A DNA stretch of 64,000 nt from Leucosporidium creatinivorum (taxonomy: Eukaryota; Basidiomycota; Microbotryomycetes; Leucosporidiales; Leucosporidiaceae), in NCBI GenBank assembly GCA_001600635.1, contig BCKL01000040.1:1-64000 (forward strand), in the 5' to 3' direction. A program made the translations under genes and the position numbers. The notes beneath the pieces are model-generated. The model was not told where the DNA came from. It made no database searches and was given only the letters and a program-made list of their open reading frames with translations. Numbering within the stretch: position 1 is the first letter of the stretch; each line of letters opens with the position of its first letter. Shown here one piece after another: positions 14,601-37,648 of this stretch.

Positions 14601-15016
14601 ATGGCTCGGCCGTCCTGCACGTCTCCCAGCTCCCGCCGAACCCCTCGCTCTTGGTTCCCGGTCCTGCTCTCCTGTGAGCTCTTTTCTCTCTCCCTGAATC
14701 TATCACATGCCGAGTCTGATTCACTTGTTCTCGCAGCTTCGTGACCATCAACGGGATTCCCTCCATCGGCCAATTCCTCATGGTCGGCTCGGGCGCTATC
14801 GAGACTCAACCTCTCCTCGACGCTACAGTCCTCCCCTCCTCGAGCGGCAACTTCATCACTACCACCTCCAGCAAGACTAAGTCTGCCTCCTCGTCTTCGA
14901 GCTCCGTCATCACCAATGGAACTACGAGCAGCGGCGCCTCGGCATTGAAGCTTCAGCTCGGCGCTCTTGCCCTCGTCGGTGGAGCTGTTGCTTGGGATGC
15001 TTTGGTAGTCGTTTGA
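11612..15016 (+). CDS. Glyoxal oxidase-like copper radical oxidase, secreted, probable GPI anchor
   Basis: Nineteen exons: 11612-11703, 11821-11848, 11947-11989, 12111-12136, 12312-12428, 12488-12614, 12677-12774, 12839-12962, 13022-13186, 13307-13367, 13439-13556, 13620-13647, 13718-13794, 13882-14083, 14145-14154, 14218-14399, 14458-14473, 14548-14673, 14737-15016; 639 residues. Copper radical oxidases turn aldehydes such as glyoxal into acids, making H2O2 outside the cell. The residues known from Phanerochaete glyoxal oxidase are all present: the cross-linked Cys in NSFCAGGN and Tyr in NRWYPSLETL, the copper-ligating Tyr-His in RLYHSSATLLPDGS, and the second His in GFSTHAMNMG. A signal peptide (residues 1-19) starts the protein. 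A Ser-rich stem and hydrophobic end (LGALALVGGAVAWDALVVV) look like a GPI signal. Exons 15 and 17 are micro-exons of 10 and 16 nt. Confidence 0.88.
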
Positions 15017-15396
15017 CGCCACATTCGTTTTTTTATCCCATCTAGCACATAGAGCCCTTCATTCATGCATCGCAATGGACATTTTGCCTAGCGAATCGCT
15101 CTCGTTCGGCGATTGCGAGAGGTTCGGTCAAGCCGAAGGGTGGACTGCAGATAAGCTCGGGAAGTAGCTCTGGTCCAAGGGATCATGAATTGCGTTTGTA
15201 CAGGCCTGGAGCTCGCTCAAAATCGCCTGCGATATACTTGAGGTGACAACCCGCTCGAGCCGGCGCTTGCCCACAGAGCTCACGAACTGCGCCAGATTCG
15301 AAGTCCTCTCTTCCTCCTCCGCTTCGCAAGCAACTCTTACCTCGTCTTCTGTACTCGATCAGCGCCGACCTTACACACCGTCACAGCTGCCCAACC
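15017..15396. other. Intergenic between glyoxal oxidase and ROT1
   Basis: 380 bases with the glyoxal oxidase 3' end and the ROT1 promoter. No gene seen. Confidence 0.4.
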
Positions 15397-16889: not shown

Positions 16890-17318
16890 GCGTCGAACGG
16901 ACTATCTTTTCCCTCGCATCATGGACAGTGAGTTGAAGCCCGGCTCGGCAGAGAAACGCTCGCTGACTTGCCTCCTCCTCGCAGCTCAGGGACTGTTGTA
17001 CATCCCCCTCCGCCTTTGCCCTCGAGCTCCCCTCCCACTTTCCGCTACCGTTAATATACCTCACGTTCACGACCAGCCTGGCCGACTCGAGAGAGGTTGG
17101 CGACCGAGACGAGCGGAGCAAGAAGTGGCCGACTCGGCTTGTTCGTCTGCAGGCGAGCAGCATCTACGGTCTCTTAGCGGTGGACCTCGTCGCCACCACT
17201 TCTCGCCGTGCTCCTCGCCTTGTATCGAATTGTGCGCGCCGAGAGCCATGGGATGCGAATGCGAGAGATTGCAACGAGCTGACAAAGTGTCTAGTTGTTG
17301 AAGTGTCTACAAAATCCC
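16890..17318. other. Convergent intergenic region, ROT1 / O-methyltransferase
   Basis: 429 bases between two convergent stops. No supported gene. It also marks the outer end of the left arm of the inverted duplication. Confidence 0.4.
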
Positions 17319-19076
17319 TTAGATTTTGGAGAAGATGATGTGGGAGAAAAGACTAGGGGGAGGGCCAGACACGATCTTCTCCAACTTGAACCCAGCGCTC
17401 TCGCCGAGCTTCCTGAACTGCTCCTCAGTGCGCTCTTGCGCGTTCATGCCAGTGAGCATCTGCATGTCGGAGAGGAAGGGGAAGTTGTTGCCGCATGAGG
17501 GGAGGAGGGGGAAGGGAGCCTTGGACGCGGGAGTGGGGTAGAGGGGGTTAATCACTTGCTCCATCAGAACGATGGCCGAGGTGGAGGAGGCAGCGGGGTG
17601 GAGCTGCTTGAGGATCTTGGCGGCGAGCTCGTCTCCCCAGTCGTGGCTGTTGATAGGGGGCAGAGTCAGCTCAAGTCAGATCAGCCTGAGCAGCGGCGGA
17701 GAGAACGGAGAAGGCGGCGAAGGAGGCGAGAACGTACACGACGGCGCGAAGGAGGTAGACCTCGGCATCCTTGACAGGCTGAGGGGTGAAGAAGTCGTGT
17801 CCGACGAGCTGGACTTGCTGCGAAGCGATGGCGGCGGGGTTCTCCTTCTCCCAAGTCTGCGATCCGTCAGCGCCGACTCCCGAGTTAGCCATCGTCGAGG
17901 CGGGAAACGAGATAGACCACTCACGTTCTTGGCCTCGCCATCGATGACTTCCTGACGATCCTGCAACACAATCTTGATCTGAGGAGCGGCCTCGGTGATC
18001 TTGAGCGAGACGGCTCCAGCACCTCCTCCGACGTCGACCACCACGGCACCCTTCTTGAGGCCGTTGAAGTCGAATCCTGGAGCGCGAGGCCGGTTCAGCG
18101 ATCTACCACGACTTCTCAAGGTACTGCTACAGCTCACCTCCATCGAAGACAATGTCCGTGAGTCCTCCGCCGAGAGCGTGAGCGCCGAGCATGGCCATTC
18201 CGAAGCGAGCGAGGTATGTCTCCTTGCCGGGTTGAGCCCAAAGATCCCAAGGAGCGACTTTCACTCCGTTGGCGATGGCGTGGGCTGCCTTTCCGGGCTC
18301 GTAGGAAGAGGCAGTCTCAGGCGAGAGGACAGCCTCGGACAGGTAGGAGGTCGCCTTGAGGAAATCCTCGGTGCAGTGAGCGATGAGGGCGGCGAATCCA
18401 TTGGTGTCGGCGAAGGGGAACTTGTTGCTGTTGAGGGGAAGACGTCAACATTCAGCGGGGAGCACAGAGAGGAGGGAGAAGCCTACTTCTTGAGGACCTT
18501 CACGCTCTTGCCGGTGTCGAGCAGCACCGAGCAGCGGTTGTTGGCGAAAGTCTCGTAGGCGGTCTCGGTGAAGATGTGGTGAGCGGCAAGGAAGCGAAGG
18601 ATGCGGGCTATCGAGGGAACGTCAGCTTGTGTGAACGTGGAGAAGGGAAGCAAGCAGCTCACCGAGCTTGGCAGGGTCGACGGCGCTCGCCTTGGCGATC
18701 TTGTTGACGTGCAGACCCCCAGCTCCTGCCTCACGAATAGCCTCAACTACATGAGCCTCGATGGCGACCCTGAGGGAGCTAGGAATGTGACCCTGCATCT
18801 CGGAAGGTCAGCGACATCGCCGAGCAGGTTGAGAAACGGACGACGACGTACGCTGATAGCCTTGACCATGGTGTATGCAGATCCTCCAAGAAGAGCTACA
18901 AGCTGTTCAGCTGCAGCAGTGGCTACAGGGGCGGAGGCTGCGGCGACGGGACCCTTGCCAGGAGTGCTGTCGTTCAGCGAAGGGATTTCGAGCTTCTCGT
19001 CGGCGAGGAGAGCATCAATAGAGGTAGTGAGCAAGTCACGAAGAGCAGTGAGTTCGTCACGGCCGGTGGTAGTCAT
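17319..19076 (-). CDS. S-adenosylmethionine-dependent O-methyltransferase, family 2 (left copy)
   Basis: Seven exons on the minus strand (19076-18852, 18792-18663, 18607-18487, 18427-18138, 18076-17925, 17856-17738, 17646-17319), 454 residues. The N-terminal part is an all-helical dimerisation/winged-helix region with the FLAAHHIFTE element. The C-terminal Rossmann domain has the SAM-binding motif VVVDVGGGAGAVSL (about residues 258-271) and, across the last intron, VVHDWGDE with the presumed catalytic His. Plant and fungal relatives methylate phenolic or polyketide hydroxyls; the substrate here cannot be read from sequence and no biosynthetic cluster surrounds it. A near-identical inverted copy lies at 35891-37648; this copy has every splice site intact and is the likely functional one. 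Confidence 0.85.
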
Positions 19077-19709
19077 GGTGAGCGAGTTTGAGTAGATTGA
19101 GGAAGGAGAAAGAGAGCGAGAGAAGCGAAAGACTTGTTCCCTTCCCTTGGGCCGCCCCGTGCTGTGTCAGTATTCCCGATGTCTCTCGGACTTGACTAAC
19201 GAAAAAGACAATGGGGTGGTACAAATAGAATGCCACGTCGGAGGGGAGCAATGCGCTCAATGCTCATCACTCTCTCCGCCGGCAGGCCCGTCCTGCCCAC
19301 CGATCATTCCGAGCTTGAGTGCACTTCGGGACTTCGGTCGGAGAAGGAAGGGGGGAGCAAGCTGAGCACTGAGCAGGGTGCGAGCGGTGTTGAGCGTGTG
19401 AGGCGAGCTGTTCGCAGGAAGACGCGCCTAGAGCTTACGCCGAACATCGAGAACTCTGACGGGATCATGGGCGTCGCCGAGCGCTTCCTCGCCTCCCACT
19501 CCTCCGAGGCGCCCTTATACTCGCTGAAGTTGTACTCGAGTAGCCGGCAAAAGCCTAAATTTCATGCTCTTACACTAGCCACACATTCCCCTATAGCTCC
19601 TCTCGCCAGATGTAGCTGCGGAAGAGAAGGAGAACGAGAAGAGATGGGAGGGTAGGCGACGAGGTCAGCTCGCCTTGCGTATCTCGGACGACAGTACATC
19701 TTAGCCCAC
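19077..19709. promoter_or_regulatory. Promoter region of the left O-methyltransferase copy
   Basis: 633 bases, nearly identical in inverted form to 35258-35890, so regulation of both copies was probably the same at duplication. It joins directly to the truncated STI1 exon 3. No distinct binding site can be claimed. Confidence 0.45.
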
Positions 19710-22346
19710 CCTGAACAGCTTGTTCCCCTCCTCCCTCTCCTCATCCGCCTTGACCGGATCAATATAAGCCAACCTCTCCTTCTCGCTCTTCTCTTTCTCG
19801 GCCTCCTCGAGCTTCGACAGGACGTCGGGAGTACGGTGCTCAGTGAGGGACTGGTTGAAGGACTCGATGGCCGAGTCGTAGTCGCCGAGACGCAGGTGGG
19901 CCGAACCGATGCGGGCGTAGGCTCTGTTCGAAGGAGGAGAGGGCCCGTTAGCTTTCGAGCGAGAGAGAAGCGTTGATGGTGACAGGGAGGCTGGAAGGAA
20001 GATCCGAAATAGCAAGTCCGGGCTGTGAAGCGATTAACTACGACACTCACTCGCCGAGTGAGAAGAGCTCGAACTCGTCTCACTCGCGCAAGAGCTCGGA
20101 GTCGCCGGCGCACACGACACCAGCCGAGCGGCAAGTCAACCCGACCCCAGTGAGGAGCTGGGGTCGACAAACTCAGGCAGAAGTCACGACGAGACGTCAT
20201 CTTGCGAAGCAGCGGCCATCGCCACCCCGCTGAGCGAAAGGTCGGCGCGCGTGCAGCTCACTGCTGGCCCTCCATGACCGGTCACCAGCCACGGCATTGA
20301 CTCAACCTGTAACGTTTGCCAAGACTGGGCTATGTAATCTGCAAGGACAGATTCGCTCCCCTCCAGCCGCCCCTCCGGCGACCCGCCAAGTCCGCCGAAG
20401 CAGAGAGCGACAGCGAGCGAGTGGCTCCTCCGAGTGGAACATGAGCCCACCATAAGCTCGAGAGGAGACAAAAGCCGCTTGACGTCCCGCAGCGTCTCGG
20501 CTGCTTTACTCGACGAGAGCACAGCGACCGAACGCAAGACGGCGCCGAGCCTCCCCTGCCTAGATGTCTGAGTGCTGAGGCCGACGTGCGGTGACCGTGC
20601 GAGAAAGTGCTCGGCTACGATCATTCGAGAAGATAGACGGCTCTCGTCTACCACTACGAGCGAAAGCAGAGCGACTCCTCCTCGCGGCTACGTCGTCTCG
20701 ACTCGTTCGACGAGCACAAGACGACGTAGCTGCGAGGCCGAAAGGGCAGAATGGCGCTCCGGCCTAGCACACAGACCTCTACACTCGCCAGAGTATAGCG
20801 GCCAGACGCGAAGAGCGACCCCAGTCCGCCTTCCCCTCGAGCGCCAGCGCAAACGGCGTCGAGGCCGAGCTGAGCCAAGACCTCGACCACCAAGTCGAAT
20901 CTCAACGCAGACACAACGCAGACGAGAGCCGACGATCACTGGTCGTAGCTCAACGCTCAGCGAGCTCTTTGAGACCGCTGCGAGAGGAGCAAACACCGTG
21001 CTGTCGCTTCAGGCTCCGCTCGGCGAAGGCTTCTCAGCCACTCGTCAGAACCGTGCCATTTCGTAGCACCAATGAGCAAAGGAAGGAGAAGGAAGAGCAA
21101 AGATCCTGCTGAGCACTGCAACCCTGCATCATCGATACAGAGCACGCAGAGCAAAGTGGCCTCTCCAGTCCCCCCTGCCGTCTCGCTCGGGTCAGGTCGT
21201 CGAGGTCTGAGGACCGCTAGCGATGATGTAGCACAGCAAGCAATGAGGTCGACGGGATGTTCTATAGCTTCCCGCCAGCCAACCGACTCGGCTGACTGCC
21301 CTGGAAAGCGTGAGCCAGCCCCTCCGTCCCTCGGCTGCTCGAGCTCGAACGCCGAGACGAGCCGTTCGTGAGGCTCGCATCGGGAGTAGACAGCAAGAAG
21401 GAAAACATGGCAATTTCAGCTCAGGCGCTAGCTCCGAAGCCCTTACGGGGCATCACAGCTCAACGCGAGCCGAAGGTCTCGGCGCTCCTTTCCCTCGGCG
21501 CGCCTCCCAAGACGGCTGAAGACGGGCTCAAGGCGAGCTAAGCGCACAGGAGACGGGAGAAGAGGGAGTCGGAAGTGATAAGCTTCCCGCAGAGTGAGCT
21601 CTGAGCACGCCGTGCGAGAAGCAAGCCTGAGCCACCCGCTCCCTCCCCTCTCAGCCAACCGAGTCGGCGTGAGGAGAGTCAAAATTGAGAAGAGATTGAT
21701 AAAGGGAACGAGAACTGCGCGTACGCGCAAGCTGACTTGACCTTAGAGGCCAGAACAGCTTGACGCGAGTAGCGCCATGAGGGGCCGCAACAGCACTGGC
21801 TCCGAGTAGAACGCTTGTCTACGCAATACCAGCGCTCCGCCACTCGCGCATGCCGCCCTTCCCTCGAGCTAGGCAAGCTCCGAACGCAACTCGGCGTTCT
21901 TCACTCTCAGCGAGCATGTCGGAGAGCTGACGATCCCTTCTCTACGCCAGCTGCTGCACCCCCAGAAGGGCGTAATAGCCTAGCGAAGAGCGAGCACCAG
22001 ACCCTCCTCTGCGAGCTGGCAGGGCGCCGAACTCTGAGGGCTGGGCTTCCAGAGACTTTGGGACGACCAGCAGCGCCGAGGCCAAGCGGAGAGCTCTCTG
22101 CTTGGTCTCGGCGCACATGCCCTCCGCAGCCACCACCGCTTCCCCTCCCTCCCTCCCAAAACTCCAGTCTTCTGCCCTCATCCCTGCCCGCCGAGCACCC
22201 ACCTCCCTCCCCTCCCCTCAACCACAGAGCGAGCAAGACGAAACTCACTTAGCGATAATCTTGAAATCCGCACTAACATCCCTGCCCTCCTCGATGGCTT
22301 GCTCGCAGATCTTGATGCAGAGGGGGTAGTCGGCTTGCTCGAAACG
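19710..22346 (-). pseudogene. STI1: Truncated STI1 copy in the left arm (exons 2 and 3 with giant intron)
   Basis: Minus strand. Exon 2 remnant about 22346-22249 (FEQADYPLCIKICEQAIEEG and onwards to DFKIIAK), intron 22248-19924 (2,325 nt), exon 3 19923-19710, with exactly the 214 nt of the intact gene (AYARIGSAHLRLGDYDSAI to EEGNKLF). Exon 1 and the last four exons of STI1 are missing; after exon 3 the sequence runs straight into the O-methyltransferase promoter. There is no start codon in a matching frame, so it should not make a useful protein. It is a host-gene fragment carried along with the methyltransferase. Confidence 0.8.
19924..22248 (-). repeat. Giant-intron repeat, copy A
   Basis: Intron of the truncated left STI1 copy. 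It shares long near-identical blocks with copy B (24464-27128), for example 20550-20703 with 25104-25262 and the ACTCTCAGCGAGCATGTCGG region near 21900 with that near 26780. It is about 340 nt shorter than copies B and C. Open frames in it (up to about 165 codons) show no family similarity. Confidence 0.75.
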
Positions 22347-23272
22347 GATGGGTGGGTGGTGAGGCGGTAGTTGAAGGCGAGGGAAAGGCGAAAGTAAGCG
22401 GTGTAGATGACTGCGGTGGCGCTGTAGGATCGTAGTCGAGTGCTGCAGAGTGACTCGTCAGTCGACCTGGTCGCTGGTCTCGTTGAGTTGCTGCTGGGCT
22501 CGCAGGAAAGAGCTGACGAGCAGTCAGATCTGCCTGTAGCTCTACAGGCCTGCTCCGCTGTCTGCCGGCTGCATTTCCGACCGAGCCTGCTCTGCCCTAC
22601 TCCTTCATCTCCAGCGGTCACTCAGCGCACAGCTCACTCACCTGTAGCAGACCCTCTCCTACGTCTCCGAGCAGCTACTGCACCTCTTCATCACCTCACG
22701 GTGCTCCCTTGACTTTTACCAGGACAAGGTCGACCTGCAGCCCTCCCATCGAGCTGGAAAGAGGCGGCGAGGCGAGGAGCGAGCGTGTAGTGTAGGCCAG
22801 CGGTCGAAGGGTGTCGGCGAGGATCTAGTACAGTCCTTAAATCAGTAGCATGGTACTGCTGCTCGATCGAAGTGGCGAGAGGCGAGAAGACGAGAGACGA
22901 GTGAGATGGGAAAGGGAGAGAGCGGGAGGCGAGGAGGGAGGTCGAGGGAAGTCGAGGGAAGTCGAGGAGCTGTACCGAGTTCGCTGTGGTGTTCCTCGTT
23001 GATAGAGAAATGCAAACACCTGCCCTAGTCTTTCGCCGCTCGTTACTGTCCCCACTCAACCACGCTCAAGCCCTCTCGTCCCCTTCGCCGAGCTCCCCGC
23101 TCTCGCTCTACGCCACCTCTTCATTCGCTCTCATCGACGCCGCGCGCAACTCGTAGGGTATCAGAACGAGGTCGTGTGACTTTTGCAAGAGAGTATGGGT
23201 GGGAGAAGAGAGCACTACTAAGAGGTGATTGCTGCGAACCGAGAGAGATCATCGCCGAAACGAGACCTACGC
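22347..23272. other. Intergenic: inner end of left arm and STI1 3' flank
   Basis: Bases up to about 22985 belong to the left arm of the inverted duplication and match 31655-32284 inverted. From there to 23272 is unique sequence downstream of the intact STI1. No gene recognised. Confidence 0.45.
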
Positions 23273-26200
23273 TCAAGGACGGCCAGTCTTGATGATGCCC
23301 TGTAGTCGAAGAGGTGAAGAAACGGAGGTCAGCAACTTGTTACGTAGCAAGACGACTCCATCGCTCGCCGGCAAGGCTGCTCGGCGAGACCGACAAAGCG
23401 AGGCACCCCATCGCTCGCCGGCAAGGCTGCTCGGCGAGACCGAAGACCAACAACTCACCGCCTTAACCAATTTCTCGACTTTGGCCCTAATCCCCGGGTT
23501 CTGCATATGCTGCATCATACTCTCCGGCTCATTCTGCGCCTGCTGCAAAATCGACTGCATCACCGGGTCGGACATGATTTGCTGCACCTCGGGGTCCCTC
23601 ATCGCTCGAGCGTAGGCCTGCTCATCGGTTTCGCCTTGGCGGGAAGCAGAGTCGGCGAGGTTGATTTTGCGGATTTGAGAGGCGATCTCGGAAGTGTGCT
23701 TTTGCTCGGTGTCTTTGGCGGCGGCCTATGTGAGAGGGGAGAGGTCAGCGCTGGGGTCGAGGGGTGGTGTAGGAAAGCAGACGCACGAGCTCGATGGCAG
23801 AAAGAGCCTTGCCGAACTCCTTCATGGCGAACAGGACGTGGGACTTGCGAATGTAGCCCTTGACTGCGGGCGAAGGACAGGACGGTCAGCTCTCGCTCCT
23901 CCACTCTCCTCGACACCAAGAGGCGACTCACCGAAATCAGGCTGCACCTCAATGGCCTTCTCAGCATCCTTCAACGCCTCGGGGAGAGCCAACAGCTTGG
24001 TGAGAGCCGCTGCTCGGTTGGTGTAGCCACGAGCGTCGGCAGGGTTGCGCTTGATCGACTCGCCGTAGTGCTGGACTGAGGTGGCAAAGTCGCCGGCCTG
24101 TAGTCGGGGAGGAGTTCGAGAAGGCGGCGGAGAGAGCGGAGGAAAGTTGGACAAGCAAGGAAGGGACGACAGAGGCGGACGGGACGGGAGAGCAAGGAGG
24201 GCGCGAGGTCAGCTCGGCCTGCAGAGCTCAGCGAGGCGTAACAGCGTACCTTGAACAGCTTGTTCCCCTCCTCCCTCGCCTCATCCGCCTTGACCGGATC
24301 AATATAAGCCAACCTCTCCTTCTCGCTCTTCTCCTTCTCGGCGTCCTTGAGCTTCGACAGGACATCGGGAGTGCGGTGCTCCGTGAGGGACTTGTTGAAG
24401 GACTTGATCGCCGAGTCGTAGTCGCCGAGACGCAGGTGGGCGGATCCGATGCGGGCGTAGGCCCTGGTGGGGGAGGGGAGGGGGAGGAGGAGTTAGCGAT
24501 GGACTCGAGGCGCCGAAAGAGGTCGGTGGCGCAAGAGCGGTAGTATCAGAGGTGTCAGGGGGGGCAAGACCACCGCATGGACGCATACAGGTCGACAGGA
24601 CTTGCCAAGCGGGAAGAGCTCAGTTCCTCCCAATTACGCAAGAGCTCGAAGCTGTCGGCGCCCTTCCTCAGCCGAGAATCGGGCGGCGCTGACAGAAGCG
24701 ACATCAGGAAGGCTGTGGATGCTCTGCAGCTGCAGCTGAGAGCTGCCTTCCGGCTAGCTCACTCAGCGAATCAGCATCCCCCCCCCCCGCCTCAGCTGAG
24801 CGAGATACGGCCGAGCCTGCTGTTCTGTCCTTCGTCGGCCGTTGCCAATCGACATTAGCCGACAGCGTGCACAACATAGCAGCGTGGAATGCAAAAGCGC
24901 CGTCTCCTGCATGTAGCTGGCCCTCCAGCGAACCGCCAAGTCCGCCGAAGTAGGAAGCGAGAGCGAGCGAGGCAGCTTCTCCGAGCGAGACACGAGCAAG
25001 CACCCTTTCGGCGTGAGTAGGAAAGAGAACCTACAGCACGGTCGTGAGCGCCGCAGCTGCTGTACTCCACGAGAGCACAGCGACCGAACGCAAGACGGCG
25101 CCGAGCCTCCCCTGCCTAGATGTCTGAGTGCTGAGGCCGACGTGCGGTGGCCGGGCGAGAAAGTGCTCGGCTACGATCATTCGAGAAAGTAGACGGCTCT
25201 CGTCTACCACTACGAGCGAAAGCAGAGCGACTCGTCCTCGCAGCTACGTCGTCTCGACTCGCCCGACGGGCTCGAGTCGGAGTGGCGCGAGGTCGAAAAG
25301 GCCGGAGGAAGCTCGACCACAGCACGCCCACTGCTACACTCAGTAGAGTACAGCGGTCCGACGCGGAGAGCGAGCCCGGCCCTGCCTCCCCCCTCGAGCA
25401 TCAACGCCGCCGTCGTTGGCGCCGAGCTGAGACCTCGAGCCAGTCGAACTACAACGCAGACAGGGCTACAGACGGACCAAGACCAGCTGAACGCCACCGG
25501 CCTCTAAGAACCAGCCGTGCGCAAGAGCAGGCTGCTCAGCCTGCCCTTCGCCCGGCTCGTGCTCGGCGCAGGCTGCTCAGCTCTGAAGGTCCTTTGCAGA
25601 GCCCACGGGGTACAGCAAGAAGCTGCGGATCAAGCACTGCAACTCCGCATCATCGACGCAAAGCCCACAGCGCAAAGCGGCCTTTCGACGCCTACTCGCC
25701 CGACTGGCGTTGTCGAGCTCGGCACGCCAGAGATGCTGTAGCACGCCTAGGGAGGAAGTCGACGGGATGTGCTACAGCTTCCCGACAGCCAATTGACTCG
25801 ACTGGCTGTACTAGAGAGCGTGAGCCAGCTCCTTGTGGCCCTCGGCTGCTCGTGCTCGAGTGCCGAGAGGCGTCTCCCGTGAGGCTAGACTCAGGACCGA
25901 GACAGTAGGGGAAGAGGCATGAACCCGCCGTCCAACGCGCCAGCTCCGACGCCCTCGGGGCATCACAGCTGAACGCGAGCGAAAGGTCTCGGCGCTCCCT
26001 TCTCCCGGTGCTCCCTTCTCTCGGCACGCCTCCCAAGTCGGCTGAAGACGGGCTCAAGGCGAGCTAAGCGCATAGGCAGCGGGAGAAGAGAGCTTCCGGA
26101 AGACATAAGCTTCCCGCGGAGTGAGCTTTGAGCCCGCCGTGCGAGAAGCGAGTTCGAGCCATCCGCTCCCTGTCTCCGGCCGTCTGACCGCTGGCATGCA

Positions 26201-27731
26201 GGTAGCGCGAGGTGAATCGAGACATGAACTACTGGGAGGGGAGCCTAGCTACGACGTCGTCTACGCGCTAGCCGATCCGACCTTGAAGGCCAGAGCAGCT
26301 CAACGCGAGCGAGCGAATCGCCTTGCTCTGCCAACCGCCGACGCTCCCTGAAACAGCTGTCGCTCGCAGTGTACAGCAAAGCTCGGCAAGGACATCTACC
26401 CTAACATCAGCTATATGCGACGCAGAGTTCAACATCTGCAGCGCCACACAGCAGGGTCGAGGTCGACAGCTCCCGATCCGAACTCAGCGAGCGCGAAGAC
26501 TGCTGAGCAGCGCAGGGAAGCGAAGATGGGACGCCTCGGTCGACATCAGGCTGACTGCTGTCCTCCGATAGAGCACAACAGGCCAGCGAGCCGAGCCATG
26601 GGCCACCCTTCGCGCCGTCTAAGTAGCCGGCGCGGCGGTACACCCTTGCCTGAGCGAGTAGCGACCATGAGCGGCCGCAACAGCACCGGCACCGAGTAGA
26701 ACGCTTGTCTACGCAATGCCAGCGCTCCGCCACTGCCCTTCCCTCGAGCTAGGCAAGCTCCAAACCCAGCTCGGCGATCTTCACTCTCAGCGAGCATGTC
26801 GGAGAGGCGCAAGTCCCCCTGCATTACGCCAGCTGCTGCACTCCCTCCAGAGCGCAACAGCCTAGCGAAGCGGTAGCCTCAGACCCTCCTTCACTGCAAG
26901 CTCGGCGCCGAACTCGGGACTGGGCTCCTAGCGCACTCGGAGACGTCAAAGGGGGCCAAACAGCGCAGAGATCGAGCAGTAGACTCCCTACTCGTTCTCG
27001 GCGCATGTCCTCCTTCGTTCTCCTCGCCCTCCCAACCTTCCGCTCTCCACCCCGCCCAGCGAGCACCTTCCACCCATCCCCGCCGAACCCCTCCCCCTCA
27101 TCTCCAAAACGAGCAAGACGAAACTCACTTGGCGATAATCTTGAAATCGGCCCTCACATCCCTTCCCTCCTCGATGGCCTGCTCGCAGGTCTTGATACAG
27201 AGGGGGTAGTCGGCTTGCTCGAAATGGACCGCTGTGAGGGGCCGAGCCGGAGCGAGGATCGGAGCGACCGAGCGGCGGGGAGAGCGGGGGTGAGTGAAAG
27301 AGAGGCGGAGGTGGTGAGCGGATGAAGGGAGGGGTACGGAGGTGGCGAGGAGAGAAAGGAGGGGGGAAGCGAGAGAAGGGGAAGTCAGCGAGCGGTTCTG
27401 TACCTCGGCGTGAAGCTTGTAGCAGCAGGTCATGAGGCACCCGATCGAGCAGTAGCTCTCCCGCCCTACCGCCCTACATCCCCTCCTGCTCCTCCTCCTT
27501 CACTGCAGCTCTCGCGCGTCGTTCTCCCGTCCCACATCTCCCATCTCCCGTCCCACAGCTCCCATCTCGGAACGTACCGGCCAAATTGTTCAAGTAAGTA
27601 ATATCCTTATGCAACTTGTACGCCTCTTGGTACTTGGTGGCCGCCTGGTCGAACTGACGAGCCTTGTAGAGGGTGTTGCCCTCTGTCTTGAGCGCTAGGG
27701 CTTGTTGTTGTTGTTCGGGCGAGGTGGACAT
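23273..27731 (-). CDS. STI1: Hsp70/Hsp90 co-chaperone Sti1, short form (TPR2A-TPR2B-DP2)
   Basis: Seven exons (27731-27578, 27231-27129, 24463-24250, 24097-23932, 23863-23787, 23725-23459, 23299-23273), 335 residues. Sti1/Hop passes clients from Hsp70 to Hsp90. The protein starts inside what is normally the middle of Sti1: TEGNTLYKARQFDQA opens TPR2A, followed by HKDITYLNN, SLTEHRTPDVLSKL, the TPR2B block ARGYTNRAAALTKL with EVQPDFVKGYIRKS, and the DP2 end (MRDPEVQQIMSDPVMQSI, then AGIIKTGRP). The N-terminal TPR1 and DP1 (about 240 residues in yeast) are absent, and the 397 bp to MBF1 have no room for them. Nematode STI-1 is known to lack the same part. The second intron is 2,665 nt. Divergently arranged with MBF1. 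Confidence 0.88.
23358..23443. repeat. Tandem repeat in the last STI1 intron (36-nt unit, period 50)
   Basis: The unit starting CCATCGCTCGCCGGCAAGG occurs at 23358-23393 and again at 23408-23443 without a mismatch. It lies inside intron 6 (23300-23458) and lengthens it. Confidence 0.85.
24464..27128 (-). repeat. Giant-intron repeat, copy B (STI1 intron 2, 2,665 nt)
   Basis: Minus-strand intron with a normal GTGAGT donor at 27128 and CAG acceptor ending at 24464. The interior shares long blocks with copies A and C. It contains the 253-codon frame 25147-25908 on the plus strand, of biased composition and no recognisable family. No terminal inverted repeats or target-site duplication could be made out by eye. 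Confidence 0.75.
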
Positions 27732-28128
27732 GTTGGGTGGGAGGGAGCTGTAGGGGAGCGGGTGAGCGGGAGAGCAGCAGGGAGGAGAGAGGGGACGGAC
27801 GATCTAGTGAGGTGCAGAGCAGAAAGAGCAGCGCGGGAGGGCAAGCAGCGGTTGACCGATTCGGCGGGCACTTAGGAGGAAGTTCGAGAAGCTCCCAGCG
27901 AGCGGGCGCCTCTTTCTTGTTCCCGCCACATCTTTACCTCGTACAAGCTCGTCTCGACACTCGTACAGCTACATCTACAACAGACCTACCGTCCTACATC
28001 TCTCTCTCAACTCTGTACGTCTACCGCTCTCGCCCTAACCCTCTCTTGCTCCCCTCCCCTCCTCGCGTGACAGCGACTGACTCGACTCGCCCACAGCTCA
28101 AACACCAATAGCAACAAGCTACAAAACA
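27732..28128. promoter_or_regulatory. Shared divergent promoter of STI1 and MBF1
   Basis: 397 bases between the two start codons. Both genes encode abundant, stress-related factors, so co-regulation is plausible. I see no unambiguous heat-shock-element array (nGAAn repeats); only isolated GAA/TTC words such as GAAGTTCGAGAAGCTCCC near 27890. Confidence 0.4.
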
Positions 28129-31100
28129 ATGGCAGGATCAATCACCGATTGGGATTCTCAGGTGTGTCATTACACTCTCCCTGTCCGTGCTGCCGTACAG
28201 CGCTGACTCTCTGTCTCGCCTCACAACTCCCAACTCGATCCACAACCCGCGTCGCTCGCTCTGATCTCATCGCTCGCCTTCGACCTCGCCTCGGCCTCCC
28301 CTCCATCCCCTCGTCTATCGACCTACCTACTTTCCATCTTTCCATCCTTCCTATTCCTTACATCGCTCGCCTCGCCTCGCTCGCCTTCGCTCGACTGCTC
28401 GCACATCCTCCTCGCCCTCCGCCCGCCCTCGACTCGGCGCGCGTAGACCGTAATCGGCCAAAAAGCCCGCGGACCCACCGTTACCCGTGATGGTGCTGCT
28501 CTCAACGCCGCGAGGAGGAGTGGTGCCAGTATCGAGACGGACAAGAAGAGTGAGTGACTTACTTGGGACGAGCCACCGCAGGTGCGACGTTGGCTGAGCG
28601 GGGAGGGGGTGTAAAGGGTGGGAGGTGACTGAGAGGAGCTGGGAGCTGAGGTCGGTCGGGCTGGAGGGAGCAAGGAAGGGAGGGCATGGGAAGGGCAAGA
28701 GGAAGAGGGAGCCGCTACAGGGCTTGCGCTGTGAGCTCATCGTTCGGTGAACGATGGGCTCGCGGTGCTGTGCGATGTATCGAGTCCGCTCTCCCCTTCG
28801 GTGCTCGTTCGGAGGAGGGAGAACGACGAGGCTGGAGCTGGTACCGGGGGGATGCTTCGCTCGCCTTCCGCTGGGTGGGCGCAGGGCGGTGGGAGCTACA
28901 GCTCGCTGCTGCATCTTCTGCGTCTCATTTCGATGGCAGCTCACCAGGTGAGGGAGGGACAAGGGAGCCAAAGGGCCCACTTCGGCGCGCCGCTAGCTCA
29001 CGTTGGCGGCGTGGGAAGCTTCAGCTCTTCCATACTTCCATCCATCTCGACCTCGGTCGACTGGGCTGGGGAACAGTCGTCTCGGAGGGAGCACAGCAGT
29101 AGAGCGCCTCGGCCTCTCCTTTCCCCGTCCAGAGGACGGAGGGCCCGCCCTGCATGCCCCTTTCCTGTCGAGATCCTATCGTACAGAAGATGGCAGTCCG
29201 AGCGTACAGCGCAGAAAGAGGATCGGATCTGGCTCTCAGTAGGGAGCTGGGCTCGTCCTTTAGCTTGTCTTCAACGTGCGCTCCGTGGCATCACTCGCCG
29301 GCTGTTCGCGGGGGCTGTGCGGCTTGCTTTCAATGGTGCTGGGGCGAGGAGGACTTGCTGCAGCTTTTCGATGAATTTGGAAAGCGTGGGTCGCACTGCA
29401 GGTGCTTCTGGAGGACAACTCGGCACATCTGAGCAGCCGAGCATGAAGCAGGGGCGAGTTCTCGCTGAGGCGCTAGATGAGGCTCGGCAGAGCTTCGTCT
29501 TCGCTTCTGAGCTTTAACTTGATCCTGCTTCTAGCGAGGCTTGGACTACACTGATGAACTTGGTGTCGGCTCCCCCACAAGCATCTCTTGCGCCGAGCGT
29601 CTCACTCGACGAGCTACAGTCGAGGTCTGGAAGGAATTAGCTGCCTCGTTTAGAGCTCGCTGGTTCTGCCTACCAGTGCTCCCGCGAGAGCTCACGGCTC
29701 GACGGCTGAGAGGCCAGGCTCGTCAACGAAGCGCAGCAGATGAGACGGGCTCGCCGGCTTTCGGAGCGGCTGGGGTGGGCTGAGGCTCGCTCTGGCACTC
29801 GGATGAAGCTGGTAAGGGAGCTATTTGGCTGGAGTCTAACGCAAAGCACTGCTTCGGCTGAGCTCGAGCGAGGAGAATCGCTCGCCCTCGAGGCGCCTAG
29901 GCAGGTCCGAGAGGATCTGTCTCGCGGATCGTTCAGGTGACGGTACCTCGTTAGTCTGATGCCTTTCGTGAAGCTGGCTGACTTGCTCCAGAGCTCATCT
30001 CTCCGAGATCGGAGGCTCTCACTGCACTTCTCGTGCGGGCGGTGGAGCGGGGGCTCTGTGGCTCGTTCGAGTTGGGAGTGTCGTGCAGGTCTCTGCCCTA
30101 CGTCTCGACGCTTTCCTGCACGAACTCGAGGGAAGTGTGCAGCTCTCGCCTCTCGCTCGGGCGTCGAGGAGGTAGCTCTTCGGCGCTCGGCGAGTGGGCG
30201 CGATGTCGAGAATATCTCGCTTCGCAAGTAAGCCTCAATGTTCTATTCGTGTGCTGGGTAGCTGCGGCTGCTGTCTTTGGACTTCTGACGTTGGGCAGCA
30301 ACCTCGGCTGGCGAGTGGGCAGGGAGGGCTCGCTTTCGAAGTGAAGGCGGCGGGCGATGCTCGCTGTCTCTCGTCGATGAAGGCACGTTCTTCCTCTATG
30401 TCCTCTCCAGGTGGTGAGGGTGAAGAGACTCGGCGGCAGAGTGACTACTCGGCTTTCGGAGTTGGCAAGGGGGGCTCGAGGAGCTCCGTTCGCCCTTCGA
30501 TTCGAACAAAGTTGTCTGCCGGCTCGGCTTGGTACTCACTTCTGTGGAGCTGTGGCTGCAGACGAGGGTTTTCTAGCAGTGTATGCTGAGTCGCTGCTGG
30601 CTGGCGCTCGCTCTCGGCGGGGGCGACGGGGCGGGGGCTGCGGCGTTCTGCTGAGTTGACTTTACGGGCCGCGCTTTCCCTTTCGAGTCGGCCATACTCA
30701 AAGCTCCTTCCCCAGAGCCTCCCATTTAGCTGAACTCGCCACCCTCACGAACCGCTCGCTGACCATGCTCTCGTCCTTCCTCCCTTCAACAGCCGGAGGC
30801 AACAAAGTCGCGGGCGTCGACCACGCCAAGATTGCCAAGCTCGACCGCGACAACGAAGTAGCTCCTCCCGCCACCGTCTCGATGGAGTTGGGCAAGGTGC
30901 TGCAGAAGGCGAGGCAGGATTACAAGGACTCGGAGGGCAAGCCTAAGCCTATGAGTCAGGGGGATTTGGCAAAGATGATCAATGCCAAGAGTACTATTGT
31001 GCAGGAGTGTGAGTACTTGGTGCTTCGGTCGATTTGTTGGTGGAGAGGGGGAGGAGACGGTGGAAGGGCGAGGAGGGAGGTGCGTCGAGGGAAGCAGCAG

Positions 31101-31464
31101 AGCGACGGCTAGGCGGAGGGAGCGCTCGCTCTCTCCTTAATTGTGATGGTTTCATCTTGCCGTAGCCTTCCCAAGGCTTGGTTGCGGAAGGAGGCGTCAC
31201 AGGCTGAGCTCGGCGGCTTCGCGCGTGGAAAGGGGCGAACCTTTGCCTCTCTCGCTCGCGACTTGGTCGTCGTTAGCAGCTTTCAGTCACCTGATCACCG
31301 CTTGCTGGAACACCTGCTGATACACCCTCTCTCACACCACCACAGACGAGAACATGAAGGCCAAGCCCGACCCCGTCATCCTCGGCAAGATGGAGCGCAT
31401 CCTCAAGGTCAAGCTCCGTGGTGCTGGAATCGGACAGCCGCTGGGAGGTCCTAAGAAGAAGTAG
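28129..31464 (+). CDS. MBF1: Multiprotein-bridging factor 1 (transcriptional coactivator)
   Basis: Four exons (28129-28161, 28447-28549, 30793-31008, 31346-31464), 156 residues. Mbf1 bridges bZIP activators and TBP and also acts on stalled ribosomes to preserve frame. The N-terminal MBF1 domain runs from [15 protein letters not shown] through [13 protein letters not shown]; the C-terminal helix-turn-helix is [20 protein letters not shown], then [15 protein letters not shown] and the final [11 protein letters not shown]. Length matches the family (about 150). All three introns are long (285, 2,243 and 337 nt), unlike neighbours other than STI1. Intron 2 falls right after the DKK of the N-terminal domain, and the spliced codon gives DKKTGGNK as expected. 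Confidence 0.92.
28550..30792 (+). other. Giant intron 2 of MBF1 (2,243 nt)
   Basis: GTGAGT donor at 28550 and CAACAG acceptor ending at 30792. The frames inside (up to 256 codons, 28747-29517) have biased Ser/Arg/Leu composition and no family similarity. I could not find clear sequence blocks shared with the STI1 giant introns. It could hold an intron-encoded RNA or a decayed insertion, but nothing specific can be claimed. Confidence 0.6.
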
Positions 31465-32284
31465 GGTGTCTAGCTTCTGAACAGTGAAATCTTTGAGCCT
31501 TGAAGGGACGTTCTGCTTCAGTCTCTTGGGCGCTGGGCGAGAGAAGGGAGAGCTCGGCGAAGGGGAGGAGGGCGATCAAGAAGTAACGACAGCTCGCAGT
31601 GAGCAGCGAGTGATACCGAGAGATAGCAGTAGAACACCACTCGCGAGCAGACCTACAGCGAACTCGGTACAGCCCTCTACTGACCTCGACGTCCCCCTCG
31701 CCCGCCCTTTCGCTCTCTCCCTCTCCCATCTCACTCGTTTCTCGTCTCCTCGTCTTCCGCCTTTCAGCTCGAGCAGCAGTACGACGTCACAGCCTACCGG
31801 GCTGCACTAGGACCTCGCCGACGCCCCTCGACCACTCGACTACACTACGCGCTCAGCTCCTCGTCTCGCCGCATCTCTCCAGCTCGATGGGAAGGCCACC
31901 GCTCGAGACTGGCACAGCTGAGGTTCGAAGGAGCGGTAGTAGCTGATGTACTGGTGCAGCAGCTGCTCGGAGATGTGGGAGAGGGTCTGCTACAAGTGAG
32001 TGAGCCGTGCGTTGAACGAGCGCTGGAGATGAGGGAGCGGGGGGCAGCGAGCTCGGTCGGAGTGCAGCTGGCGGTATGAGTGCACATCTGTAGACCTGCA
32101 GCTAGCTGGTATTTGCTTCTCAGCCTCTCCAGCGAGCTCAACAGTAGCTCAACGAGGCCAGCGACGAAGCGAACTGACGCGCCTCCGTCTGCAGTAATTG
32201 GCTGCAACACTACAGCACCACTCGGTACACTCCGCGTCTTCCTCCTTTCCAACCCACTTCTACCCACCACCTCACCACTCGCAC
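31465..32284. other. Intergenic: MBF1 3' flank and inner end of right arm
   Basis: About 190 bases of MBF1 3' flank, then from about 31655 the right-arm duplicate of 22350-22985. No supported gene. Confidence 0.45.
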
Positions 32285-35257
32285 ACTTCGAGCAAGCCGA
32301 CTACGCCCTCTGTATCCAGACCTGCGAGCAGGCCATCGAGGAGGGCAGGGATGTGAGGGCCGATTTCAAGATTATTGCTAAGTGAGTACTGGGGCTTCGC
32401 TATTATAGGGGGTGTGAGAGCTGGGCGGGGGTAGGCTGGGCGGCTCGGGGTGGGATGATGGGAGGATGGAGAGGGGGCAGGACTGGAGCTGGAGCTGGGA
32501 GAGAGGAAGAGGACGTGCCCGCCCTGTGGCTGAGCGAGGGAAGATCTTGCTCCGTCCGCTGCTGTCACGCTCCGTTTGCCTCGAAGCCGAGCAGCTCAAG
32601 CCGAGTTCGGCGCCGAGCCAGCGGTAGGTGGAGGGTCTGGAGCTCCCTCTTCGCTAGACTGTTACGCCCTTCTGGGGGTGCAGCAGCTGGCTTGTAAAAG
32701 GGATCATCAGGCTCTCGACATGCTCGCTGAGAGTGAAGATGGCCGAGCTGGGTTCGGAGTTCGCTCAAGACGAGGGGACGGCAGCAGCATGAGCAAGGAG
32801 GGAGCGCCGACAGCGAGTAGAGCGGGCTCTATTTAGTGCCGGTGCTCTCCTTCTCTTGCTCCCGTGCGCCCTCCGAGGTTGAGGCGAGAGTGGGGCGCCG
32901 AGCAGCAGCGTAGCAGGGCGCAAAGGGTTCGCCGCTAGACTCGCTGGTCCGTTGTGCTCTATCCGAGTACAGCAGTCAGCCTGAGGTCGACCTACGGGTC
33001 CCCTCTCCGCTTCCCTGCGCTGCTCAGCAGTCTTCGCGCTCGCCGAGTTCGGGGCTGGGAGCTATCGGCCTCGACCCTGCTGCGTGACGCTGCAGATCAC
33101 TATGTCTGTAGCGCAGCTTAGCTCGGTGTCTATCTTGCTATTGCTCTCGGCTCCCGGCTCTTCCAAGAGTCTCACAAACACGAGCGGCTCGAAGGAGCGG
33201 CGCCGAGCACTGAGCAGCACCAGAGGAGGGCGGCTTAATTCACTCGCGTCGAGCTGCTCTGGCCTGAGAGGTCGGATCAGCCTGCGCGTGTGCGCACTTG
33301 TCGTCGCCTTTCACAATCCCTCTCAATTTCGACTCTCCTCACGCCGACTCGGTCGGCTGACAAGGGAGGGAGCGGGTGGCTCAGGCTTGCTTCTCGCACA
33401 GCAGGCTCAGAGCCGGCGCTCCGGGAGGCTGAGACGTATGCCTGCTGTCCCTCTTGTCCTATGAACGCGTGTCTCGCCTTGATCTGTTCGCTCGTTGAGC
33501 CGAGAGCAGAGCAGAGCCGAGAGGGAGGGAGCGCCGAACTGTTCGCTCGCGTTGTGCTGTAATGCATTCATGGCATTGAAGCTAGCGCATGGGACGTGCC
33601 TTCCACTCTCCTTCTCTGCTATGACGGCTCGAGTCCAGCCTCACAAATGGCTCGTCTCGGCGTTCGAGCTCGAGCAGCCGAGGCGAAGGCGCCGGCTCTC
33701 GCTGTCCAGCACAGTCAGTCGAGTCAATTGGCTGTCGGGAAGCTGTCAAGCCTCCTCTCGATCACCTTGCTCTTGCTTTGCTACGGCTTCACTGGCGGTC
33801 GTCTGAGCTCGACGAGGCCAGTCGTGCGAGCAGGCGGGGGAGTCGAGAGGTCGCTTTGCACTGTGGGCTTTGCATCCGATGGTGCGTGGCTGCAGTGCTC
33901 GGTTCCCTCGGTCCCCTTCTCCCAGTTATTCGCTCGTCGGCGCCAAGATCCGGTACGGTTGCAACAGTTGGCTGAGCAGCCTTCGCCGAGCGTCAGGCGG
34001 GCGAGGCGCGGACGAGCATCCTGCTCTTCTCGTAGCAGCTTCGTAGATGCTGCTGCGGTTTGAGCTAGTCGCGATCTTGCGTCCTTGGTCTGGCTGCGCT
34101 TGGGGCCGATGGCTTTCGGTTGACACGAGAAGTAGGGAGGAGAGACGGATTTTTTCGCGTGGGATTGCTGCACTCTGGTGAGCGGGGTGATCTGCGTGGC
34201 ATCGTCGGTCTCCGCTTCGCCGTTCAGGCCTCGCGCCTCCGCCATGTGCTCGTCGAACGAGTTGAGACGACGTAGGCCTGGGAGGGAGCCACACTGCCTC
34301 TCGCTCGCATTGGGAGGCGCAAGTCGTCTTCTGATTTGAATGATTCTGGTGTTGACCTCGGACCTCTGACGCAGAGGTGGCTTGAGAGCAGAAGCCGAGG
34401 CAGAGGAAGCTCGGCGCCGTTTGGCGTTCAGTCGCTGTGCCCTCCTTGAGTACTGTAGCCGAGACGCTAGCGACACCCTTCCGGCTTCCTTGACTTCGCT
34501 TGAGCTGGGGGGTGCTCGCGTCTCGCTCGGAGGACATGCTCGCTCGCTCGGTCTCGCTCTCTACTTCGGCGGAATGGTGGTTCGCTGGAGAGGCGGCTTG
34601 GAGGGCTGCGGGATGTGCGGACGCGCTACATCGCAGTATCGTGTACTCCGCAGTCACAGGGAGTGATCGGTGACGAACGGGGCCCACGGCAGCAGGCTCG
34701 CCGCTCGCTCTCTCGCTCGGCTGAGGCGGCTTTGGACGCTGCTTCGCGAGGGAGTGAGGCACTTGATGACGTTTCATCATGACTTCTGTCTGAGTTTGTT
34801 GACCCCAGGTACTCGCTGAGGTAGGGTTGGCTTGCCGCTCCGCTGGGGTCGTGAGTGCCGGCGACTTCGAGCTCTTGCGCGAGTGAGACGAGTTCAAGCT
34901 CTTTTCACATGGCGAGTATGCGCTGTAGTCGAGTAGCTTCACTGCCCAGACTTGCTATCCTGGGACACCCATCCAGCCTCCCTGTCACCATCGACGCTTC
35001 TCTCTCACCCGAAAGCTAACGGGCCCTCTCCTCCTTCAAACAGGGCCTACGCCCGCATCGGTTCTGCCCACCTGTGTCTCGGCGACTACAACTCGGCCAT
35101 CAAGTCCTTCAACAAGTCCCTCACGGAGCACCGTACTCCCGACGTGCTGAGCAAGCTCAAGGACGCCGAGAAGGAGAAGAGCGAGAAGGAGCGCCTGGCT
35201 TACATTGATCCGGTCAAGGCGGATGAGGCGAGGGAGGAGGGGAATAAGCTGTTCAAG
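32285..35257 (+). pseudogene. STI1: Truncated STI1 copy in the right arm (exons 2 and 3 with giant intron)
   Basis: Exon 2 remnant 32285-32381 (HFEQADYALCIQTCEQAIEEG to DFKIIAK), intron 32382-35043 (2,662 nt), exon 3 35044-35257 (214 nt, AYARIGSAHLCLGDYNSAI to EEGNKLFK). As in the left arm, exon 1 and the downstream exons are missing and the 3' junction (GTGGGCTGAGATG) leads into the O-methyltransferase promoter. The normal acceptor before exon 2 is not conserved. Confidence 0.8.
32382..35043 (+). repeat. Giant-intron repeat, copy C
   Basis: 2,662 nt, three bases different in length from copy B, with GTGAGT donor and CAG acceptor. It shares blocks with copies A and B (for instance GACATGCTCGCTGAGAGTGA near 32720, the inverse of a block in the others) but looks the most diverged of the three. 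The long minus-strand frames here (up to 338 codons) have no family similarity. Confidence 0.7.
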
Positions 35258-35890
35258 GTGGGCTGAGATGTATTGTCGTCCAAGGTTCCCGAGAGTCGAG
35301 CTGACCTTGTCTCCTACCCTCTCTTCCCCTTCTCGGTTTCCTTCTTTTTCGCAGCTACGTCTGGCGAGAGGTATAGGGGAATGTGGCTAGTGTAAGAGCA
35401 TGGAATGTAAGCTTTTGCCGGCTACTCGAGTACAGCTTCAGCGAGTATAAGGGCGCCTCGGAGCAGAAGGAGGCGAAGAAGCGCCTCGGCGACGCTGTTG
35501 ATCCCGTCAGCCGTCTCGGTGTTCGGCGTAGGCGCCAGGCGCGTCTTCCTGCGAACAGCTCGCGTCGCTCGCACCCTCAACACAGCTCGCACGCTGCTCA
35601 GCTTCGGCTTGTTCCTCCCTTCCTTCCCCGACCGAAGTCCCGAAGTGCACTCAAGCTCGGAATGATCGGTGGGCAGGACGGGCCTGCCGGCGGAGAGAGT
35701 GATGAGCATTGAGCGCATTGCTCCCCTCCGACGTGGCATTCTATTTGTACCACCATTGTCCTTTTCGTTAGTCAAGTCCGAGAGACATCGGGAATACTGA
35801 CACAGCACGGGGCGGCCCAAGGGAAGGGAACAAGTCTTTCGCTTCTCTCGCTCTCTTTCTCCTTCCTCAATCTACTCAAACTCGCTCACC
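35258..35890. promoter_or_regulatory. Promoter region of the right O-methyltransferase copy
   Basis: 633 bases, almost identical inverted copy of 19077-19709. No separate gene. Confidence 0.45.
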
Positions 35891-37648
35891 ATGACTACCA
35901 CCGGCCGTGACGAACTCACTGCTCTTCGTGACTTGCTCACTACCTCTATTGATGCTCTCCTCGCCGACGAGAAGCTCGAAATCCCTTCGCTGAACGACAG
36001 CACTCCTGGCAAGGGTCCCGTCGCCGCCGTCTCCGCCCCTGTAGCCACTGCTGCAGCTGAACAGCTTGTAGCTCTTCTCGGAGGATCTGCTTACACCATG
36101 GTCAAGGCCATCAGCGTACGTCGTCGTCCGTTTCTCAACCTGCTCGGCGATGTCGTTGACCGTTCGGCATGCAGGGCCATGTTGCTAGCTCGCTGAGGGT
36201 CGCCATCGAGGCTCATGTAGTTGAGGCTATTCGCGAAGCTGGAAAGGGGAATCTGCACGTCGATGAGATCGCCAAGGCGAGCGCCGTCGACCCTGCCAAG
36301 CTCGGGAGTCGGTGAGTCCCTTGCTTCCCTTCTCCTTGCTCACACGAGCTGACTTTGACTTGATAGCCCGCATCCTTCGCTTCCTTGCCGCTTACCACAT
36401 CTTCACCGAGACCGCCTACGAGACCTTCGGCAACGACCGCTGCTCGGTCCTGCTCGACACCGGCAAGAGCGTGAAGGACCTCAAGGAGTGGGCTGCTTCC
36501 CTTCTCTCTGTGCTCCCCGCTGACTGTTGACGTCGTCCCCTCAATAGCAACAAGTTCCCCTACGCGGACACCAACGGATTCGCTGCCCTCATCGCTCACT
36601 GCACCGAGGATTTCCTCAAGGCGACCTCCTACCTGTCCGAGGCTGTCCTCTCGCCTGAGACTGCGACCTCTTACGAGCCCGGCAAGGCTGCTCACGCCCT
36701 CGCTATGGGCGTCAATGTTTCCCCTTGGGAGCTATGGTCTCAGCCAGGGAAGGAGCCGTACCTTGCTCGCTTCGGAATGGCCATGCTCGGCGCTCAAGCT
36801 CTCGGCGGAGGCCTTATAGACATCGTCTTTGATGGAGGTGAGCTGTAGCGACACTTTGAGAAGTCGTGGTAGATCGCTGACCCGGCCTCTCACCCCAGGA
36901 TTCGACTTCGCCGGCCTCAAGAAGGATGCCGTAGTGGTTGACGTCGGAGGAGGTGCTGGAGCCGTCTCGCTCAAGATCGCCGAGGCCGCTCCTCAGATCA
37001 AGATTGTGCTGCAGGACCGTCAAGAGGTCATCGATGGCGAGGCTAAGAATGTGAGTGATCCATCTCGTCGACCGCCTCGACGACGGCTGACTCGGCGGCT
37101 TCGACTGGCAGACGTGGGAGAGGGAGAACCCTGCCGCCATCGCGTCACAGCAAGTCCAGCTCGTCGGACACGACTTCTTCAACCCTCAGCCTGTCAAGGA
37201 GGCCGACGTCTACCTCCTTCGCGCTATTGTGTACGGTCGTCGCTCGCTCATCGGCGATTCTCTTCGCGCCGAGCATCTACTCTCATCATCTTATACTCTG
37301 CGCTGACCACATTTTTGCTGCCATGACTGGGGAGAAGACCTTGCGGTCAAAATCCTCAAGCAGCTGCACACCGCCGCCTCCTCCGCGTCGGCCCTCGTCC
37401 TGATGGAGCAAGTCATCAATCCTCTTGCGCCCTCTCCCAACTCCAAGGCCCCCTTCCCTCGTCTTCCTTCCCTCGGCAACACATTCCCTTTTCTGTTCGA
37501 CATGCAGATGCTTGCGGGGTTGAACTCGCAAGAGCGGACCGAGGAGCAGTTTAAGAAGCTCGGTGAGGCTGCTGGCTGGAAGTTGGATAGGATCGTCTCG
37601 GGCCCCCCGCCTGCTCAGTTCTCCCATATCGTCTACTCGAGGATCTGA
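35891..37648 (+). pseudogene. O-methyltransferase, family 2 (right copy, two splice-site lesions)
   Basis: Exons corresponding to the left copy: 35891-36115, 36175-36304, 36367-36487, 36548-36837, 36899-37050, 37112-37230, 37321-37648. Exon lengths match the left copy base for base and the domains are conserved (VVVDVGGGAGAVSL; HDFFNPQPVKEADVYLLRA; DWGEDL). Two differences matter. After exon 2, seven extra bases (36305-36311) lie before the GTGAGT, so normal splicing would shift the frame. At the last intron the acceptor AG is TG (37319-37320), with no in-frame substitute nearby. It is therefore probably a recent pseudogene, or it makes a different C-terminus by other splicing. The first exon differs from the left copy by one residue, so decay is young. 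Confidence 0.75.

What the first reader, a model, noticed from the sequence alone, without database searches (positions are those of the whole stretch)
17319..37648. Large inverted duplication carrying an O-methyltransferase and pieces of STI1 on both sides of the intact STI1-MBF1 pair
Two arms of about 5.7 and 6.0 kb in opposite orientation enclose 8.7 kb. Both include the same truncated STI1 (exons 2-3 plus giant intron) fused at the same base to the methyltransferase promoter. STI1 sequence is thus present three times within 18 kb. Such a palindromic layout is prone to inversion, hairpins and gene conversion, and the near identity of the arms suggests youth or homogenisation.
Basis: seen in the sequence. 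Interest (0 to 1): 0.75.

Follow-up and report, generated by a model that had tools for sequence, protein, structure and literature searches.

The report
Old inverted duplication with patchwork copying
In a fungal genome, a methyltransferase gene and a broken piece of the chaperone-helper gene STI1 sit in mirror image on both sides of the complete STI1 gene; the two copies are old and diverged, but stretches appear to have been copied between them, which is a known process and not a new kind of system.

Summary
The mirror-image layout is real: arms 17316-22987 and 31655-37651, opposite orientation, enclosing 8.7 kb with divergent STI1 and MBF1. The claimed near identity is wrong. Ungapped identity is 78.5% over 5545 columns and very uneven: 99% in a 0.46 kb core (OMT promoter and first codons), 85-89% around it, 67% in most of the giant STI1 intron. 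A three-way comparison shows alternating left-right and left-STI1 tracts. Best reading: an old inverted duplication of a methyltransferase plus a truncated STI1, patched by short ectopic gene-conversion tracts. The left methyltransferase looks intact; the right one has a frame-shifting length change and lacks a splice acceptor. An apparent 100% extra copy on contig C35 is contig overlap; C35 ends inside the 266-bp exact left/right match, so spacer orientation needs long reads. One result is unexplained: both truncated STI1 pieces keep an open frame with fewer amino-acid changes than a neutral model expects, yet have no visible start codon. New member of a known kind; modest interest.

The parts
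17316..22987 (-). left arm of the inverted duplication
   Evidence: blastn self-comparison, sliding identity
31655..37651 (+). right arm of the inverted duplication
17319..19076 (-). O-methyltransferase, left copy, 7 exons, 454 aa, looks intact; DVGGGAG and HDW motifs
   Evidence: splicing by hand and translation; Pfam Methyltransf_2 8e-22 and Dimerisation 1.5e-7; roles of the motifs recalled
35891..37648 (+). O-methyltransferase, right copy, probably a pseudogene: 7-base length difference at the exon 2 donor, no AG acceptor before the last exon
18881..19341 (-). near-identical core (99.1% with the right arm), probably the most recent conversion tract; holds the OMT promoter and first codons
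19711..19923 (-). STI1 exon 3 piece, left arm
19924..22248 (-). left copy of the STI1 giant intron (GT and AG ends kept)
22249..22347 (-). STI1 exon 2 piece, left arm (acceptor at the STI1 place missing)
22348..22987 (-). inner 0.64 kb block shared by the arms (72% identical); no other match found in the genome search
23273..27731 (-). complete STI1 gene, 335 aa by hand splicing, TPR2A-TPR2B-DP2 only; giant intron 24464-27128
28129..31464 (+). MBF1 gene, divergent from STI1, also with a large intron region (28551-30828; a small exon inside may be missed)
31655..32283 (+). right copy of the inner block
32284..32381 (+). STI1 exon 2 piece, right arm
32382..35043 (+). right copy of the STI1 giant intron
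35044..35257 (+). STI1 exon 3 piece, right arm
20503..20911 (-). left tract closest to the complete STI1 intron (best segment; 96% in two windows of 100 columns), a second conversion pair
1..19034 (.). stretch repeated letter for letter as the last 19034 bases of contig C35: contig overlap, not a duplication

Best explanation
An old local duplication in inverted orientation placed two copies of a block [O-methyltransferase, its promoter, STI1 exon 3, giant intron, exon 2, 0.64 kb of unknown DNA] on either side of the divergent STI1-MBF1 pair. Since then the left arm, the right arm and the complete STI1 gene have exchanged short stretches by ectopic gene conversion, so that age differs from block to block. 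The latest visible exchange covers the methyltransferase promoter and first codons. Shown: the layout, the mosaic of identities, the matching junctions, the lesions in the right methyltransferase. Inferred: that conversion made the mosaic, the order of events, and that break repair or template switching made the inverted copy.
For: Collinear inverted blocks. Identity falls from 99.1% (18881-19341) to 88% on both sides, then to 72% at the OMT 3' end and 67% in most of the giant intron. Left-right synonymous differences are 0 in the first 40 codons and dS is 0.85 and 1.08 in the last two full blocks, while left and right against the third methyltransferase are high in every one of eight full blocks of 55 codons (pS 0.40-0.68), so the core is not merely constrained. 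Three-way: of 953 two-against-one columns among 2522, 379 pair L with R, 379 pair L with STI1, 195 pair R with STI1; each pair has a best segment that 0 of 2000 shuffles matched. The longer tracts (about 0.29, 0.41 and 0.46 kb) are of the order quoted for yeast, about 500 bp in one study and 200-300 bp in most others (passage of PMC3924818).
Against: No related strain or species was available, so direction and dating of conversion are not shown. The shuffles treat columns as independent, which is generous. The dS profile along the methyltransferase is not smooth. The constraint seen on the truncated STI1 exons is not predicted by conversion plus neutral decay. C35 ends inside the exact core match, so the assembly is weakest just there.
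Confidence: 0.8

Rival explanations
1. A young palindromic duplication whose arms are still nearly identical.
For: A core with exact matches of 266 and 127 bases.
Against: 78.5% overall identity; 67% in 1949 columns of the giant intron; dS up to 1.08.
Confidence: 0.03
2. Assembly artefact: an arm, or the orientation of the spacer, is a misjoin.
For: Contig C35 stops at window base 19034, inside the 266-base exact left/right match; C40 begins inside another inverted repeat. C35 and C40 overlap by 19034 identical bases yet were not merged.
Against: Arms differ at over 20% of positions, so one cannot be a copy made by the assembler; the only N in the window are at 41141-41160, outside the arms. 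The orientation of the spacer is not secured by this.
Confidence: 0.08
3. The identity peak is functional constraint on a shared promoter, without conversion.
For: The peak lies on the OMT promoter and start.
Against: Synonymous sites of the first 55 codons vary against the third copy (pS 0.61 and 0.63) but hardly between arms (0.02); a 96% left-STI1 tract lies deep in an intron.
Confidence: 0.07
4. The STI1 pieces in the arms are still expressed exons, for example alternative terminal exons of the upstream neighbour on the same strand (STI1 for the left, MBF1 for the right) or a small TPR product.
For: 103 codons open in both arms; amino-acid changes L-R 12 against 21.7 expected and R-STI1 4 against 13.0, each 0 of 3000 simulations; L-STI1 8 against 13.6, P 0.007. 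Donor and acceptor ends of the giant intron are kept. A GTGAGT site is shared in the inner block.
Against: No in-frame ATG in the pieces, no coding frame shared upstream as judged by eye, no AG at the STI1 place before exon 2 in either arm. The pieces hold only part of TPR2A.
Confidence: 0.12

Closest known systems
Ectopic (interlocus) gene conversion between local fungal paralogues, e.g. a region of Aspergillus chromosome 1 (PMC12844118, abstract read)
   Same: local duplicated genes, exchange between them, broken copies
   Different: here inverted arms around a third, complete parent gene; no second species compared
Partial and chimeric segmental gene duplicates (PMC4546093, passages read)
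   Same: truncated copy joined to other sequence; inverted orientation about as frequent as direct in the human set
   Different: human data; our truncated piece is doubled and older
Sex-chromosome palindromes kept alike by arm-to-arm conversion (PMC3308322, seen only in a search listing; details recalled)
   Same: inverted arms, conversion
   Different: those are near identical along their length (recalled); ours are not, and the STE3 and homeodomain matches lie on other contigs (C25, C24)
hop (STI1) downstream region as a recombination-prone place in plants (PMC4522979, abstract read)
   Same: rearrangement next to STI1/hop
   Different: plants, chl-fus gene; the abstract reports no inverted copies of hop exons; probably coincidence

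Membership tests
inverted segmental duplication | two collinear homologous blocks in opposite orientation | tested here: met
near-identical palindrome | arms near identical along their length | tested here: not met
   78.5% overall
ectopic gene conversion | short tracts of raised identity covering coding, intron and promoter alike | tested here: met
ectopic gene conversion | donor and recipient assigned with orthologues | not testable with these tools
   The genome search states that the genome has no relatives here
O-methyltransferase of the Pfam PF00891 type | Methyltransf_2 and Dimerisation domains over the cut-off | tested here: met
   left copy and C35 copy; the right copy was not scanned
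Sti1/Hop | TPR2A-TPR2B-DP2 | tested here: met
   aligns to residues 218-540 of 7kw7_E; PF17830 over cut-off
Sti1/Hop | N-terminal TPR1-DP1 | tested here: not met
   not in the gene; a recalled yeast TPR1-DP1 query gave 20 matches up to E 1, best 4.5e-9 on C11 over residues 5-106, none followed up; two searches found one STI1
transposable element | many dispersed copies of the arm or giant intron | tested here: not met
   only the copies on C40, besides the C35 overlap and the third OMT; the search skips very common words, so this is not absolute

The most novel reading that the evidence does not exclude
The truncated STI1 exons in both arms are still used, as alternative terminal exons of STI1 (left) and MBF1 (right) or as a small TPR product, and the inverted arms let the STI1-MBF1 cassette flip between two settings.
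Probability: 0.05. Interest if true: 0.7.

Novelty: new member of a known kind. Interest (0 to 1): 0.33.

Why it matters
It is a compact natural case in which three partial paralogues in both orientations carry tracts of different age within 18 kb, with a further methyltransferase copy nearby as outgroup. It also shows how a contig end at a near-identical tract can pose as an extra, 100% identical gene copy. The unexplained constraint on the truncated STI1 exons is the one part that could become more than ordinary.

Tried and rejected
Extra methyltransferase copy on C35 (100%): rejected, contig overlap. Mobile element in the giant intron: not supported, three copies only. Known RNA in arms or introns: no Rfam family at gathering score in the window; four matches far below gathering score at E up to 5. 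Mating-type region: STE3 and Homeobox_KN matches lie on C25 and C24, not C35 or C40; linkage between contigs unknown. Fusion of STI1 exons to the methyltransferase: the frame upstream of its ATG is open for only 30 codons, identically in both arms, inside the near-identical core, so it says nothing. Coding 5' exon in the inner block: judged by eye, the two arms share no open frame; the right arm alone has one without an ATG.

Full report
What is there. The window is C40:1-64000 of a 27.7 Mb genome in 63 contigs. I take it to be fungal: short introns with GT-AG ends and an STE3 pheromone-receptor match; the species was not identified. Self-comparison gives a collinear inverted match between 17316-22987 and 31655-37651. 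The arms measure 5672 and 5997 bases and the spacer 8667. The spacer holds STI1 (23273-27731, minus) and MBF1 (28129-31464, plus), divergent. Each arm holds, in order on its coding strand, a 0.64 kb block for which no other match was found, STI1 exon 2, the giant intron, exon 3, the first bases of intron 3, a promoter region, and an O-methyltransferase. Both arms leave STI1 homology at matching places; on the intron 3 side the right-arm junction rests on a short motif, since blastn to STI1 stops about 9 bases into the intron there.

How alike the copies are. Over 5545 ungapped columns the arms are 78.5% identical. By block: OMT 3' end 72.2% (417 columns), OMT middle 88.4% (1133), core 18881-19341 99.1% (459), further upstream 88.1% (303), STI1 exon 3 and flank 88.7% (275), next intron stretch 85.1% (289), rest of giant intron 66.7% (1949), exon 2 89.2% (93), inner block 72.4% (624). 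The longest exact matches are 266 and 127 bases, next to each other in the core. The unevenness was reached in 0 of 2000 shuffles. So the claim of near identity fails, and the claim of homogenisation holds for part of the arms.

Conversion. Between the two methyltransferases dS per 40 codons is 0 at the start, 0.08-0.83 in the next eight blocks and 0.85 and 1.08 in the last two full blocks. The run is not smooth. Against a third methyltransferase (C35:208221 to about 210000, 444 aa) both copies are diverged in every full block, including the first, so the core is not simply a constrained stretch. Across 2522 three-way columns of the STI1 part, 379 join left and right, 379 join left and complete STI1, 195 join right and complete STI1. 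These sit in blocks: left-right at L 20214-19927, left-STI1 at L 20911-20503 with 96% in two windows of 100, others shorter; for each pair the best segment was reached in 0 of 2000 shuffles. The shuffles treat columns as independent, which is generous. The simplest cause is ectopic gene conversion in short tracts. Direction cannot be told without relatives.

State of the genes. The left methyltransferase splices to 454 aa with PF00891 and PF08100 over cut-off. The right one has a length change of 7 bases at the exon 2 donor and no AG before its last exon, so it is probably dead; yet overall dN 0.071 against dS 0.351 suggests that both were under constraint for much of their life. The complete STI1 aligns with residues 218-540 of the human-type STIP1 chain 7kw7_E: it is a short form without TPR1-DP1. 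A recalled yeast TPR1-DP1 query gave 20 matches up to E 1, best 4.5e-9 on C11 over residues 5-106; I did not follow these up, and read them as other TPR proteins. Worm Hop also lacks TPR1 (passage of PMC8629791).

Result that does not fit. The STI1 exon 2-3 pieces in the arms are open over 103 codons without indels. dS is 0.252, 0.240 and 0.263, and dN 0.034, 0.031 and 0.066 for L-STI1, R-STI1 and L-R. In a neutral simulation with the intron's own substitution pattern, amino-acid differences were too few: L-STI1 8 against 13.6 (P 0.007), R-STI1 4 against 13.0 and L-R 12 against 21.7 (0 of 3000 each). The lack of stops means little (expected in 59%, 61% and 42% of runs). Conversion resets both kinds of change, so it does not explain this. 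Yet there is no in-frame start codon in the pieces, no acceptor at the STI1 place before exon 2 in either arm, and no frame that I could see shared upstream. Either the pieces were parts of live genes until late, or they are still used in a way not visible in DNA.

Assembly. The last 19034 bases of C35 equal window 1-19034 letter for letter. This removes an apparent extra copy and extends the map to the left. C35 ends at 19034, inside the 266-base exact match; C40 begins inside another inverted repeat. Orientation of the spacer is therefore the least secure fact here.

Neighbourhood. In 108 kb of joined sequence there are two further inverted pairs of note: 40265-43392 with 76144-73018 (92.3%), and a pair around window 1 with C35 near 207.5 kb (89%, 65% farther out); the third methyltransferase is also inverted relative to the left one. 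A short repeat at 4190-4640, the start of an apparent gene family, gave 42 matches on C35, C40, C14 and C1, counting itself and copies seen twice through the contig overlap. The locus lies in a duplication-rich stretch, so the arms are one of several local inverted duplications.

Literature. Five searches were made. I read abstracts of PMC4522979 and PMC12844118, and passages of PMC8629791, PMC3924818 and PMC4546093. None of the listed titles named an STI1 fragment joined to a methyltransferase; that is no proof of absence from print.

Verdict. It is best read as an old inverted duplication patched by gene conversion: a new member of a known kind, interest 0.33.

Noticed in passing
window 1-19034: Identical to the last 19034 bases of contig C35; the two contigs overlap and were not merged.
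   Followed up: yes
window 23273-27731: The only STI1 that the searches found in the genome lacks TPR1-DP1.
   Followed up: partly
window 24464-27128 and 28551-30828: Neighbouring STI1 and MBF1 both carry intron stretches above 2 kb (a small MBF1 exon may lie within the second), while the methyltransferase introns are 53-91 bases.
   Followed up: partly
window 40265-43392 and C40:73018-76144: Another inverted duplication, 3.16 kb at 92.3%, with five scattered N at 41141-41160 inside it.
   Followed up: no
window 4190-4640, 5791-6150, 40381-40681: Start of an apparent gene family, 42 matches on C35, C40, C14 and C1, itself and overlap doubles included.
   Followed up: partly
window 1-1422: Inverted relative near C35:206.3-207.9 kb, 89% in part and 65% farther out, beside the third methyltransferase.
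   Followed up: partly
window 20680-20737: Self-complementary stretch of about 58 bases in the left giant intron.
   Followed up: no
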